From NCBI GenBank assembly GCA_009692705.1, contig SHYR01000001.1:1-33947 (forward strand): a stretch of DNA of 33,947 nt, written 5' to 3'. The notes under the pieces were generated by a model. The model was not told where the DNA came from and did not search any database. It saw only the letters and a program-made list of their open reading frames with translations. The position numbers were made by a program, and so were the translations under genes. Each line of letters begins with the position of its first letter. Position 1 is the stretch's first letter. The DNA is from Dehalococcoidia bacterium. Its GTDB lineage: Bacteria > Chloroflexota > Dehalococcoidia > UBA2979. This document shows positions 29,220 to 33,370 of the stretch, in pieces.

Positions 29220-30244
29220 GCCTCGTCGCGCTGGACGGCATGGGCGGCGACCTCGCCCCGGCGGTGACCGCCGAGGGCGCGGTGATCGCCGCTGCCCGCG
29301 GCGTGGAGGTGGCGCTGGTCGGCGACGCCGCCGCGCTGGAGCGGGAGTGCGCGCGCCTCGGCGGGCGGCCGGCGGGCGTGCGCATCGTGCACGCCGCGGA
29401 CGCGATCGCGATGCAGGAGCATGCGGCGCTGGAGCTGCGACGGCGGCGCGAGTCCTCGATCGCCGTCGGGCTGGAGCTGGTGAAGCGCGGCGAGGTGGAG
29501 GCGTTCGTCTCGTTGGGCAACACCGGCGCGGTGCTCGCGCTGGCGCTCGTCGTGCTCGGCCGCCTGGCGGGTGTGGAGCGCCCCGCGCTCGCGGCGCTGC
29601 TTCCGAGCCCCGCCGGCCCACGGCTGCTGCTCGATGCCGGGGCGAACGCCGAGGCACGGCCCTCGCACCTGGTGCAGTTCGCACGGCTGGGTGCGGCGTA
29701 CATGCGCGCGGTGGCCGGCGTGGCGGACCCCGGCGTGCGGCTGCTGAACATCGGCGAGGAGCCGTCCAAGGGCTCTTCGCTCACGCTCGAGGTGCACGCA
29801 GCGCTCGCCGCCTCCTCGCTGCGCTTCCTCGGCAACGTGGAGGGCCGTGAGCTCGCGACGACGGATGCCGACGTGATCGTGACCGACGGGTTCACCGGCA
29901 ACGTCGCGCTGAAGACGATCGAGGGCATAGTGTCGCTGCTGAGCGGCGAGGTGCGTCGCGCCGCGATGGCCTCGCTGCGCGGCCGCGCTGGCGGGCTGCT
30001 ACTGCGGCCCAGCCTGCGCCGGTTGCAGCGGCAGCTCGATTACCGGCAGGTCGGCGGCGTGCCGCTGCTGGGCGTGGACGGCATCGTGATCGTGGGGCAC
30101 GGCCGCAGCGACGGCGAGGCGGTGGCGAACGCGGTGGAGGCGGCGGCGCGCGCGGCACAGCAGCGCATGGTGGCGGCGCTCACCGCGGCGGTGGAGGCGG
30201 CGGACGCGCCGCCCAGCCGAGAGCGGGCGCGGGGCGGGGGCTAA
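29216..30244 (+). CDS. plsX: Phosphate acyltransferase PlsX
   Basis: PlsX converts acyl-ACP and phosphate to acyl-phosphate, the donor for PlsY in phosphatidic acid synthesis. The 342 aa product has VALDGMGGDLAPA, MQEHAALELRRRRESSIAVG, FVSLGNTGAVLALA, LNIGEEPSKGSSL and TDGFTGNVALKTIEG, ending with the VDGIVIVGHGRSDGEAVANAV block. GTG start at 29216, GTGA overlap with the methyltransferase. No fabD, fabH or acpP follows, unlike many genomes. The 3' end overlaps the end of csoR by 4 nt, tail to tail. Confidence 0.95.
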   Translation: MSLVALDGMGGDLAPAVTAEGAVIAAARGVEVALVGDAAALERECARLGGRPAGVRIVHAADAIAMQEHAALELRRRRESSIAVGLELVKRGEVEAFVSLGNTGAVLALALVVLGRLAGVERPALAALLPSPAGPRLLLDAGANAEARPSHLVQFARLGAAYMRAVAGVADPGVRLLNIGEEPSKGSSLTLEVHAALAASSLRFLGNVEGRELATTDADVIVTDGFTGNVALKTIEGIVSLLSGEVRRAAMASLRGRAGGLLLRPSLRRLQRQLDYRQVGGVPLLGVDGIVIVGHGRSDGEAVANAVEAAARAAQQRMVAALTAAVEAADAPPSRERARGGG

Positions 30245-30570
30245 GTGGTGGAGGAGGTGGTCGAGGCGGTCGGGCTGCCGCCGCGCTGGTCGCCACCGGC
30301 GGAGGCGGGGGTGAAGCGCCACCACAGGCGCATCGACTCCCGCAGCGCATCGACCTGCGGTCCGAGGTTGCCGGCGTCGATGCAGCGGCCCATGTGCGTA
30401 TCGAGCAGCAGCGCGCCCACCGTGTCGATGCCAGAGCGAACCGCCATCAACTGCGTCACCACGTCCTCACAGGAGCGTTCACTCTCCAGCATGCGGGCGA
30501 TGCCGCGGACCTGGCCCTCGATGCGGCTCAGGCGTGCGCGCAGTTGGTCGACGCTGCTGTCTTCGCTCAT
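30241..30570 (-). CDS. csoR: CsoR-family copper-sensing repressor
   Basis: CsoR proteins are all-helical tetramers that leave DNA when Cu(I) binds. The 109 aa product has QLRARLSRIEGQVRGIARMLE at the start (seen as SRIEGQVRGIARM) and the C-H-C ligand set C34, H59, C63, with the same 25- and 4-residue spacing as M. tuberculosis C36-H61-C65. That His separates it from the sulfide-sensing CstR type. The last ~20 residues are Ser/Thr/Gly-rich. The ATG at 30570 has an AGGGAT ribosome site. It has its own promoter and overlaps an operator; the nearest target is trxA. Confidence 0.92.
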   Translation of the reverse strand: MSEDSSVDQLRARLSRIEGQVRGIARMLESERSCEDVVTQLMAVRSGIDTVGALLLDTHMGRCIDAGNLGPQVDALRESMRLWWRFTPASAGGDQRGGSPTASTTSSTT

Positions 30571-30810: not shown

Positions 30811-31134
30811 ATGGCGCACCCGACCGATACCACCGACGCGACGTTCGAGGTGGACGTGCTCAAGAACGACCGACCGGTGCTGGTCGACTTCTGGGCGCCG
30901 TGGTGCGGTCCGTGCCGCATGGTCGCCCCGATCGTCGAGGAGCTGGCGGATGAGTACGACGGCAAGGTCAAGTTCGTGAAGTTGAATACGGATGAGAACC
31001 CGCAGGTGGCCGGGAAATACGGCATCCGCTCGATCCCGACGCTGCTCGTCTTCAAGGACGGCAAGCTGGTCACGCAGATCGTCGGCTTCCGGCCGAAGAG
31101 CGACCTCGCGAAGCGCCTCGAGGAGGCGCTGTAG
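30811..31134 (+). CDS. trxA: Thioredoxin
   Basis: Thioredoxin is the cytoplasmic dithiol reductant. The 107 aa product has the active site WCGPC (31-35) in [18 protein letters not shown] and the cis-proline in [10 protein letters not shown] (P76). The ATG is preceded by AAAGGA with 8-nt spacing. It is divergent from csoR with a CsoR operator between, and trxB lies downstream, so a copper-responsive thiol-reducing set is likely. Family certain; regulation inferred. Confidence 0.97.
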
Positions 31135-31151
31135 CCCGCCTCCAGCCGGTC

Positions 31152-31206
31152 CGAGCAGACAAGAACGGGCGGGCTGTGGAACAGCCCGCCCGTTCTTGTC
31201 TGCTCG
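31152..31206. terminator. 26-bp perfect-stem hairpin after trxA
   Basis: The arms 31152-31177 and 31181-31206 are fully complementary over 26 bp with loop GGA; the inner part is GC-rich (ACGGGCGGGCTGT) and the outer part mixed. It starts 17 nt after the trxA stop. It probably stops transcription, but it is much longer than a normal terminator stem and lacks a T tract. A small inserted palindrome or an RNase III-type processing site are alternatives. Confidence 0.6.
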
Positions 31207-31240
31207 TCCGCTCGCCTGACGCGCATGATCAGAGGTGGCG

Positions 31241-31263
31241 ATGCGGATCGACATGCGGATCGA
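31241..31263. repeat. 11-mer tandem repeat upstream of trxB
   Basis: ATGCGGATCGA occurs at 31241-31251 and 31253-31263, a 12-nt period. It lies in the 205-nt gap between the trxA hairpin and trxB. The same gap has a TTGACG (31290-31295) and TAGCTA (31316-31321), but their 20-nt spacing is too wide for a convincing promoter. Confidence 0.7.
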
Positions 31264-31411
31264 GTTGCCGTGGTTGGAAACGTGGATCATTGACGCAGTA
31301 CGCGCGATGCGAGGCTAGCTACAACCGTTTGCCGGCGCTCGCGCCTGGCGCCGCTCACGACCGGCCGGCGCCGTGACCGCGCGGGCGTACCGCGCGGAGG
31401 GTGAGGAACGC

Positions 31412-32344
31412 GTGCAGGACGTCGACGTCGCGATCATCGGCGGCGGCCCGGCAGGGCTGGCGGCCGGCCTCTACGCCGCGCGCGCCCGCCGCCGCAGCGT
31501 GCTCTGGGAGGGCGCGTTGCTGGGCGGCCAGATCGCCGCCACCGGCACGATCGAGAACTACCCTGGCCTCCCCGACGGCATCGAGGGGCCGGCGCTCGTT
31601 GCCGCGATGCACGGGCAGGCGGAGCGCTTCGGCCTCGAGACGCACTACGAGGCGATTACCGCGCTGCAGCGCGAGCCGCCGTACTACGTGCTCGACACCG
31701 CTGCCGGTCGCTACCGCGCGAAGGCGGTGATCGTGACCGCCGGCGCGACGCCGAACAAACTCGACGTGCCCGGCGAAGCGGAGCTGACCGGCAAGGGCGT
31801 CTCCTACTGCGCCACCTGCGACGCCGCCTTCTTCAAGGGCGATGAGGTCGCGGTGATCGGCGGTGGCGACACCGCCCTCGACGAGGGCCTGTTCGCCGCC
31901 CGCTTCGCGAGGCGTGTGCACATCATCCACCGCCGCAGCGCGCTGCGCGCCAGCGCGCTGTTGCAGGAGCGCGCCCGCGCGCAACCGAAGATCGACTTCA
32001 CGTGGAACACGATCGTGACGCGGGTCAACGGCCGGGACGCCGTCACATCGCTTAGCCTGCAAAACGTCGAATCGGCCGTTGCCAGCGAGCTGGCCGTGAG
32101 CGGCGTGTTCGTCTTCATCGGCCAGACGCCGAACTCCAGCTTGCTCGATGGCCTGGTGCCGCTCGACCGTGGCGGGCACGCCTACGTCAATCTGTGGATG
32201 GAGACGGACCGGCCGGGGCTGTTCGTCGCCGGCGACGTGCGCGTCGCTGCCGCGCGCCAGCTGGTCTCCGCTGCCGGTGACGGCGCGACCGCCGCGATCC
32301 GCGCCGATCATTACATCGCCGAGCGCTTCGACCGCGGGCGCTAG
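31412..32344 (+). CDS. trxB: Thioredoxin reductase
   Basis: TrxB passes electrons from NADPH via FAD to thioredoxin. The 310 aa product shows the FAD motif VAIIGGGPAGLAAGLYAARA, the redox pair C133-x2-C136 in SYCATCDAAFF, the NADPH motif AVIGGGDTALDEG with HIIHRRSALRA, and the FAD end motif LFVAGDVR with QLVSAAGDGA. GTG 31412 was chosen because GAGG lies 5 nt before it and the protein then starts QDVDVAIIGGG; GTG 31373 would add 13 residues. The substrate is presumably the adjacent TrxA. Confidence 0.95.
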   Translation: MQDVDVAIIGGGPAGLAAGLYAARARRRSVLWEGALLGGQIAATGTIENYPGLPDGIEGPALVAAMHGQAERFGLETHYEAITALQREPPYYVLDTAAGRYRAKAVIVTAGATPNKLDVPGEAELTGKGVSYCATCDAAFFKGDEVAVIGGGDTALDEGLFAARFARRVHIIHRRSALRASALLQERARAQPKIDFTWNTIVTRVNGRDAVTSLSLQNVESAVASELAVSGVFVFIGQTPNSSLLDGLVPLDRGGHAYVNLWMETDRPGLFVAGDVRVAAARQLVSAAGDGATAAIRADHYIAERFDRGR

Positions 32345-32411: not shown

Positions 32412-32508
32412 GGGAGTGGATGGTGCCCGGTGGTGCCTGCGGTCTTCAAAACTGTTGCGGGGCTACGTAGTAGTCCCGGGTGGGTTCGACTCCCACGCAC
32501 TCCCGCCA
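32412..32508 (+). tRNA. selC: tRNA-Sec (anticodon UCA)
   Basis: The 97-nt sequence folds as a selenocysteine tRNA. It has a 6-bp D stem (32422-32427 with 32432-32437) and a 4-nt loop CGGT. The anticodon stem is 32439-32443 with 32451-32455, and the loop CTTCAAA carries TCA. An 8-bp variable arm (32459-32466 with 32470-32477) has loop GTA; the 5-bp T stem has loop TTCGACT. The acceptor is closed by G32505 and an encoded CCA (32506-32508). The 7 acceptor pairs are perfect; the eighth position is G-G where bacterial tRNA-Sec has a pair. TCA reads UGA, so SelA, SelB and SelD should exist elsewhere. Confidence 0.93.
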
Positions 32509-32590: not shown

Positions 32591-33370
32591 CTAGGACACG
32601 CGCCTCGCCAACACCACGTCGCGATCCAGGTACTCGCCGAAGCCGGTCCCGAGCGGTACGAGGCGGCCGCCGCACGTGATGAGCGTGATCCACTCCTCGC
32701 CGGCGGGGCGGGGGGAGGGCCAGATCACCTCTGCCATCGGTATCTCGCGCTCGTCATAGCGAATGTTGCTGAAGACCACGTAGCGGAAGCGGCGACCGTC
32801 CTGCATCTGGACCACGATCTCGTCGCCCGCGCGCGCGCTGTACAGGCTGTAGAAGGGGCCGTGTTGCTTGTTCCACGTCTCGTGTGCGGAGAACACCGCG
32901 TTCGAGCCCGTGCCCGGAGCGGCGTAGGGGTAGTACCAGCCGACGGCGGAGACCCCGTCCAGCGGAGACTGCAGCTGCTGATCGACCACACCCAGGCCCT
33001 CGATGTGGTGATCGATGCCGAGGCGCGGAGCGATCATGCGTGCGATGCCGCCGGTGGGCGCGGCGCTCGCGGCGGGACGCGGGGCCGCGACGGCCGCCGC
33101 CGGAGGCGCCGAGGGAGGGTCCACCGGCAGCGGGGCCGCTTCGATCAGCGGCTCGCTCGCGTAGAAGTGCGCGCCGCCGCCGGCGGTGAGAGCAACGACC
33201 GTGACGTCACCGGTGGCGCCGCGCGCGAAGACGCGGGTGCGCCCGAGCTGCGGCAGCGCGTAGAGCAGGCTGAGCAGCAGCACCGCCACCGCGAGCATGG
33301 CCGCCGCCAGCACCGCCTGTGCGGGCACAGCGGACGGGAGGCGGCGCCAGCGCCCGAGGGACGATCTCAT
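32591..33370 (-). CDS. Sortase family transpeptidase
   Basis: Sortases cut a C-terminal sorting signal on secreted proteins and attach them to the cell surface or to each other. The 259 aa product has a single N-terminal membrane segment (about residues 14-40), a Pro/Ala-rich linker (78-106), then the sortase beta-barrel with H163 in FSAHETW, C233 in TLITCGG and R250 in YLDRDVV. The ATG at 33370 puts the membrane anchor 15 residues from the start. The class cannot be settled (D/E/F-like). No sorting-signal substrate lies in the window. A GC-rich palindromic tract (32573-32586) follows the stop. Confidence 0.88.
   Translation of the reverse strand: MRSSLGRWRRLPSAVPAQAVLAAAMLAVAVLLLSLLYALPQLGRTRVFARGATGDVTVVALTAGGGAHFYASEPLIEAAPLPVDPPSAPPAAAVAAPRPAASAAPTGGIARMIAPRLGIDHHIEGLGVVDQQLQSPLDGVSAVGWYYPYAAPGTGSNAVFSAHETWNKQHGPFYSLYSARAGDEIVVQMQDGRRFRYVVFSNIRYDEREIPMAEVIWPSPRPAGEEWITLITCGGRLVPLGTGFGEYLDRDVVLARRVS

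What the first reader, a model, noticed from the sequence alone, without database searches (positions are those of the whole stretch)
32412..32508. Selenocysteine tRNA gene beside trxB
The fold and UCA anticodon are those of tRNA-Sec, so this genome reads some UGA codons as selenocysteine. No gene in the window shows an in-frame UGA, so selenoproteins must lie elsewhere. The position after trxA-trxB is suggestive, since thioredoxin can reduce selenium compounds. Selenocysteine use is patchy in the suspected phylum.
Basis: partly seen in the sequence, partly recalled or inferred. Interest (0 to 1): 0.6.

Follow-up and report, generated by a model that had tools for sequence, protein, structure and literature searches.

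The report
Selenocysteine tRNA beside thioredoxin genes
This is a real selenocysteine tRNA gene from a Chloroflexota bacterium that has the rest of the machinery for putting selenium into proteins and at least one gene that needs it; its place beside the thioredoxin genes is shared by about half of the relatives examined, several of which keep a selenium-containing thioredoxin-reducing enzyme there.

Summary
Confirmed. Window 32412-32508 (+) is a tRNA-Sec gene (ARAGORN, UCA anticodon; Rfam RF01852 74.5 bits, cut-off 47). The 1.18-Mb, 77%-complete genome also holds selA, selB and selD over their curated cut-offs, on other contigs, and one selenoprotein gene found here: a ResA-like WASW-UGA-GC protein (NF041054, 322 bits, cut-off 300) with a SECIS-like hairpin 20 nt after the UGA. 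Relatives keep the UGA; the one stop-free homologue reads Cys and lies in a genome without tRNA-Sec.

The thioredoxin neighbourhood is not accidental. Of 54 tRNA-Sec loci from the same class, 28 have trxA, trxB or ftrB within 1.5 kb upstream, none downstream. In several relatives, the genus-mate included, ftrB (ferredoxin:thioredoxin reductase) lies between trxA and trxB with an in-frame UGA at the last active-site Cys (CHC to CHU), followed by an invariant, covarying hairpin GGAA[GGUC]UUCC. The window lacks ftrB in that slot; no copy was found in the assembly.

The tRNA has a G.G mismatch at acceptor pair 8; 40 of 54 class tRNAs have a purine-purine mismatch there. In E. coli this pair is an EF-Tu antideterminant.

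The gene is a new member of a known kind; the single-Sec FtrB group, trx linkage and mismatch are modestly new.

The parts
32412..32508 (+). tRNA-Sec gene (selC), UCA anticodon, CCA encoded
   Evidence: ARAGORN; RF01852 74.5 bits, cut-off 47; fold
32446..32448 (+). anticodon TCA
   Evidence: ARAGORN, anticodon at position 35
32419..32419 (+). G of acceptor pair 8, opposite G at 32497 (G.G mismatch)
   Evidence: Unpaired in the fold; purine-purine in 40 of 54 class tRNA-Sec
32497..32497 (+). G on the 3' side of acceptor pair 8
31373..32344 (+). trxB, NADPH-type thioredoxin reductase
   Evidence: PF07992 154 bits; TIGR01292 335.7 bits, just under its cut-off of 343.45
31135..31372 (.). trxA-trxB gap where relatives carry ftrB with an in-frame Sec UGA; empty here
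   Evidence: Order in relatives; no convincing remnant; no ftrB in the assembly
30811..31134 (+). trxA, thioredoxin with WCGPC
   Evidence: TIGR01068 137.9 bits, cut-off 96.8
30241..30570 (-). CsoR-type metal-sensitive repressor gene, part of the conserved cluster
   Evidence: PF02583 79.3 bits, cut-off 22.8; same place in relatives

Best explanation
The feature is a functional tRNA-Sec gene that works in a bacterial selenocysteine system. Inferred from homology: SerRS charges it with serine, SelA and selenophosphate from SelD convert this to Sec-tRNA, and SelB delivers it to UGA codons followed by a SECIS hairpin. Shown here: selA, selB and selD are in the same genome, and a selenoprotein gene (ResA-like WAxxUGC) has the UGA, coding sequence on both sides and a SECIS-like hairpin. 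Also shown: the tRNA gene sits at the end of a thioredoxin cluster (csoR, trxA, ftrB, trxB, tRNA-Sec) whose parts recur beside tRNA-Sec in many families of the class; in several relatives the ftrB of that cluster itself carries a Sec UGA, and in this genome ftrB is missing from the slot. Inferred: the tRNA stayed linked to the thioredoxin system because FtrB was, or is, a main user of Sec in the lineage, and the G.G mismatch at acceptor pair 8 is compatible with SelB and may help to exclude EF-Tu.
For: tRNA model and fold. selA, selB, selD over cut-off. WAxxUGC protein over its family cut-off with UGA and a hairpin of SECIS type; 16 of 17 genomes with a homologue keep the TGA, and the stop-free one reads Cys and lacks tRNA-Sec. 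trx or ftr genes upstream in 28 of 54 class loci, none downstream. FtrB CHU in 21 class-sample genomes, 20 of them with tRNA-Sec, against 7 of 16 with stop-free FtrB. Conserved covarying hairpin after the FtrB UGA made of codons that are rare in window genes.
Against: No expression or protein data. Only one selenoprotein gene was found in this assembly, its hairpin competes with another fold and its stem shows too little variation for a covariation test. ftrB is absent from the assembly. The acceptor stem lacks the eighth pair. About half of the class loci do not have the trx neighbours.
Confidence: 0.93

Rival explanations
1. The gene is a relic in a lineage that is losing Sec use: the window lacks ftrB, the acceptor stem has a mismatch, and the tRNA no longer works.
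For: ftrB missing from its slot; G.G mismatch; few selenoprotein genes found.
Against: Full-length selA, selB and selD without stops, an intact WAxxUGC gene, and the same mismatch in most tRNA-Sec of the class, including genomes with several Sec-UGA genes.
Confidence: 0.04
2. It is a tRNA-Sec look-alike (selC-like tRNA-Cys or allo-tRNA) that inserts another amino acid.
For: Such tRNAs share the long extra arm (PMC7609411).
Against: UCA anticodon, G73, 6-bp D-stem, 74.5 bits to the Sec model and a complete sel gene set.
Confidence: 0.01
3. The tRNA is functional but its place beside trxA-trxB has no functional meaning; it is one old arrangement passed on.
For: Half of the class loci lack the neighbours; no shared promoter was detected; synteny can persist by inheritance.
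Against: The linkage recurs in many families of the class, always with trx upstream on the same strand, and in several genomes the gene between trx and tRNA is itself a Sec-UGA gene of the thioredoxin pathway.
Confidence: 0.35

Closest known systems
Bacterial tRNA-Sec (RF01852, selC)
   Same: UCA anticodon, 6-bp D-stem with 4-nt loop, long extra arm, G73, score well over the curated cut-off
   Different: Acceptor pair 8 is a G.G mismatch where E. coli has C7-G66; the gene is beside trxA-trxB and not in a selAB operon
NF041054 WAxxUGC_long (ResA-like, UGC-containing TlpA/Prx-like selenoproteins)
   Same: Own-genome protein scores 322 bits (cut-off 300) and has WASW-U-GC
   Different: Nothing notable
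NF041072 FtrB_double_U (ferredoxin:thioredoxin reductase double selenoprotein)
   Same: FTR catalytic chain with Sec in the last CxU motif (relatives only)
   Different: The relatives' protein has one Sec (CPC, CPC/CAC, CHU) instead of two, scores 27-48 bits against a cut-off of 160, and in many genomes lies in the trx cluster
12-bp and bulged tRNA-Sec forms (PMC5330540)
   Same: Reduced pairing in the acceptor/T helix in a bacterial tRNA-Sec
   Different: Here the helix keeps 13 levels and has a purine-purine mismatch at level 8, not a shorter stem

Membership tests
tRNA-Sec (RF01852) | Covariance model score over the gathering score | tested here: met
   74.5 bits, cut-off 47
tRNA-Sec (RF01852) | UCA anticodon | tested here: met
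tRNA-Sec (RF01852) | 6-bp D-stem with 4-nt loop, long extra arm, G73 | tested here: met
tRNA-Sec (RF01852) | 13-bp acceptor plus T helix (8/5 in bacteria) | tested here: inconclusive
   13 levels, but level 8 is G.G, so 12 standard pairs. The same state is common in the class, and 12-bp forms are accepted as functional (PMC5330540)
Bacterial Sec decoding trait | selA, selB and selD in the genome | tested here: met
Bacterial Sec decoding trait | A gene with a Sec UGA and a SECIS hairpin | tested here: met
   WAxxUGC gene on C56, loop 20 nt after the UGA; hairpin by sequence and constraints only
Bacterial Sec decoding trait | Sec shown in the protein | not testable with these tools
   Needs mass spectrometry or 75Se labelling
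NF041054 WAxxUGC_long (own-genome selenoprotein) | Score over the curated cut-off and WAxxUGC motif | tested here: met
   322 bits, cut-off 300; WASWUGC
NF041072 FtrB_double_U (relatives' FtrB) | Score over the curated cut-off and two Sec | tested here: not met
   27-48 bits, cut-off 160; one Sec. Works like it, not filed as a member
PF02943 FeThRed_B (relatives' FtrB) | Score over the gathering score | tested here: met
   84.8 bits, cut-off 22

The most novel reading that the evidence does not exclude
In a large part of this Chloroflexota class the thioredoxin system is served by a single-Sec ferredoxin:thioredoxin reductase whose redox-active Cys is replaced by Sec. Its gene was clustered early with trxA, trxB and the Sec tRNA, making a thioredoxin-selenocysteine island, and the tRNA uses a purine-purine mismatch at acceptor pair 8 in place of the E. 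coli C7-G66 pair as its SelB/EF-Tu discrimination signal.
Probability: 0.3. Interest if true: 0.55.

Novelty: new member of a known kind. Interest (0 to 1): 0.35.

Why it matters
It settles that this uncultured Chloroflexota lineage very probably decodes UGA as selenocysteine and names one gene that depends on it. The neighbourhood leads to a single-Sec ferredoxin:thioredoxin reductase group for which the NCBIfam search showed no model except the double-Sec form, so annotation would probably cut these proteins short at the UGA. The mismatch at a known SelB/EF-Tu recognition pair gives a direct test of how tRNA-Sec is told apart from other tRNAs outside E. coli.

Tried and rejected
Formate dehydrogenase as the Sec user: only a sub-cut-off hit without a stop. 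SelD as a selenoprotein: no in-frame stop. ftrB in the own genome: none with two profiles and no convincing remnant in the trxA-trxB gap. UGSC family: absent here, present in relatives. A scan for UGA codons with coding signal on both sides, over about 714 kb of own-genome stretches and the window, gave adjacent genes in one frame and two non-redox read-throughs (a DUF4760-like and a sigma-70-like protein), which I take for sequence errors or broken genes; the scan did not cover the WAxxUGC contig C56. A promoter/terminator scan gave nothing for the tRNA. One search of the paper library for selC with trxA found no report of this linkage; the library misses most subscription journals.

Full report
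The observation. ARAGORN and Rfam RF01852 (74.5 bits, cut-off 47) agree on a tRNA-Sec gene at 32412-32508 (+), and it is the only true tRNA-Sec in the genome. Its minimum-energy fold is the expected cloverleaf with a 6-bp D-stem, a 4-nt D-loop and a 9-bp extra arm; G73 and CCA are encoded. Upstream lie a CsoR-type repressor gene on the reverse strand, trxA and trxB; downstream is a sortase gene on the other strand.

The machinery. The genome (G000: 58 contigs, 1,176,117 bases, 77% complete) has selB (C22; 299 bits for the matched stretch, 316 for the full 636-aa protein, cut-off 242), selA (C20, 508 bits, cut-off 268) and selD (C42, 379 bits, cut-off 125). None is on the tRNA's contig. SelB has winged-helix domains, including the last one, which binds SECIS in known SelBs (established knowledge).

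A selenoprotein gene in this genome. A PF00578 search gave one match with an in-frame TGA, on C56. The frame encodes a 358-aa protein with WASW-U-GCR and a TPR-like C-terminal part. It passes the cut-off of NF041054, the WAxxUGC family (322 bits, cut-off 300); UGC-containing Prx/TlpA-like proteins are a listed selenoprotein group (reviews PMC13188914 and PMC9312934). Twenty nt after the UGA begins the loop of CCUGCC[GGUCU]GGCAGG (-10 kcal/mol), which fits the published bacterial SECIS constraints on stem, loop, spacing and energy. A longer competing fold exists, and the stem varies too little for a covariation test. Of 60 genomes searched, 17 (this one included) have a homologue; 16 of them have a TGA in it, and the one stop-free form (G003, 96% complete) is in a genome without detected tRNA-Sec and reads WASWCSCR.

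The lineage. I infer Chloroflexota, probably Dehalococcoidia. In a class sample 103 of 157 genomes have a tRNA-Sec, so the trait is common but patchy.

The neighbourhood. In 54 tRNA-Sec loci of the class (28 best-scoring ones) trxA is upstream on the same strand in 24, trxB in 15, and ftrB on the opposite strand in 7; 28 loci have at least one of these, and none has any downstream. The order csoR(-) trxA(+) ftrB(-) trxB(+) is seen in G007, G013, G014, G015, G021 and the same-genus genome G001, with the tRNA-Sec in the same stretch for G013; in L060, a contig of the same length as G015:C239, it also follows trxB (in G021 the csoR match ends in the same order). Others have trxA-ftrB-tRNA without trxB in the stretch (G008, G010, G016, G019, G022). 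The window has trxA-trxB-tRNA without ftrB. The gap holds no convincing ftrB remnant, and no ftrB is found in the assembly, so it is lost or unassembled.

FtrB with one Sec. The relatives' ftrB reads CPC..C(P/A)C..CH-UGA and goes on for several tens of codons that align with Cys-form homologues. The UGA takes the place of the second Cys of the CHC motif of solved FTR chains, one of the two active-site disulfide Cys of plant and cyanobacterial FTR (established knowledge). The protein is PF02943 (84.8 bits) but far under the cut-off of NF041072, the double-Sec form (27-48 vs 160 bits). The hairpin after the UGA is GGAA[GGUC]UUCC in every single-Sec form looked at and in none of the Cys forms looked at. 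An outer pair changes from U-A to C-G on both sides together in 4 of 13 and 3 of 12 sequences in two structural subtypes. The fixed codons GAA, GGT and CTT are rare in window genes (10%, 5.5% and 2% of their amino acid's codons). Of 21 class-sample genomes with CHU, 20 have a detected tRNA-Sec; in the exception, G020, the ftrB contig ends about 235 bases beyond the gene. Among 16 genomes with FtrB free of TGA only 7 have it (Fisher p = 0.0007, ancestry ignored, and not every one of the 16 was read residue by residue). Sec-containing FTR was first reported from two ocean sequences, one with two Sec (PMC2398784), so a Sec form as such is not new.

The mismatch. Acceptor pair 8 is G.G in this tRNA. 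In the class sample it is purine-purine in 40 of 54 (35 G.G, 4 G.A, 1 A.G) and paired in 14. In E. coli the corresponding pair C7-G66 is one of three that serve SelB recognition and reject EF-Tu (PMC9976931). Functional-looking 12-bp and bulged tRNA-Sec forms are known (PMC5330540). That the mismatch itself serves discrimination is my inference.

Verdict. The gene is an ordinary member of a known family; the synteny with a Sec-containing FTR in relatives and the conserved mismatch are the points a specialist would want to follow.

Noticed in passing
L016:5240 (+), own contig C22: A DUF4760-like frame continues through an in-frame UGA (YWRG-U-LKRD) with coding signal on both sides; not a redox context, probably a sequence error or broken gene.
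   Followed up: partly
L217:4592 (+), own contig C42: A sigma-70-like frame has an in-frame UGA inside region 2 (FWRQP-U-SYDA); probably a sequence error or broken gene.
   Followed up: partly
relatives such as G001, G006, G007, G008, G010, G012, G013, G026, G027, G031: UGSC-family genes with one TGA, often several per genome; none in the window's own genome.
   Followed up: partly
G009, G023, G041, G082, G147: Two high-scoring tRNA-Sec matches in one assembly; duplicate genes or assembly overlap.
   Followed up: no
L152 (G027) and L211 (G047): Double-Sec FtrB (CPU..CIU) in relatives; no tRNA-Sec was found in the 80%-complete G027.
   Followed up: no
FtrB of relatives, four residues after the Sec: Most single-Sec FtrBs read CHU-LLFC while the Cys forms read CHC-LLFV: an extra Cys goes with the Sec, with exceptions (L177, L180).
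   Followed up: no
L075 (CAMDBZ010000005.1) and L079 (CAMDAY010000203.1): MAG records titled Thermoflexus hugenholtzii and Dehalococcoides mccartyi have contig lengths equal to contigs of family f1 genomes (G018:C5, G023:C203), so the titles look wrong.
   Followed up: no
L088:2765 (-), JAJRSX010000005.1: A frame FFNRS-U-SGCRPAREFL near a tRNA-Sec looks like a glutaredoxin-like Sec-UGA gene.
   Followed up: no
Gemmatimonadota and Sporomusa loci (for example L056, L061, L064, L100): Their tRNA-Sec genes have a G.A mismatch at acceptor pair 8; the search pattern imposed the G but not its partner.
   Followed up: partly
window 32591-33370 (-): A sortase-domain protein (PF04203 58 bits; class F and class E sortase models match below their cut-offs) follows the tRNA on the other strand.
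   Followed up: no
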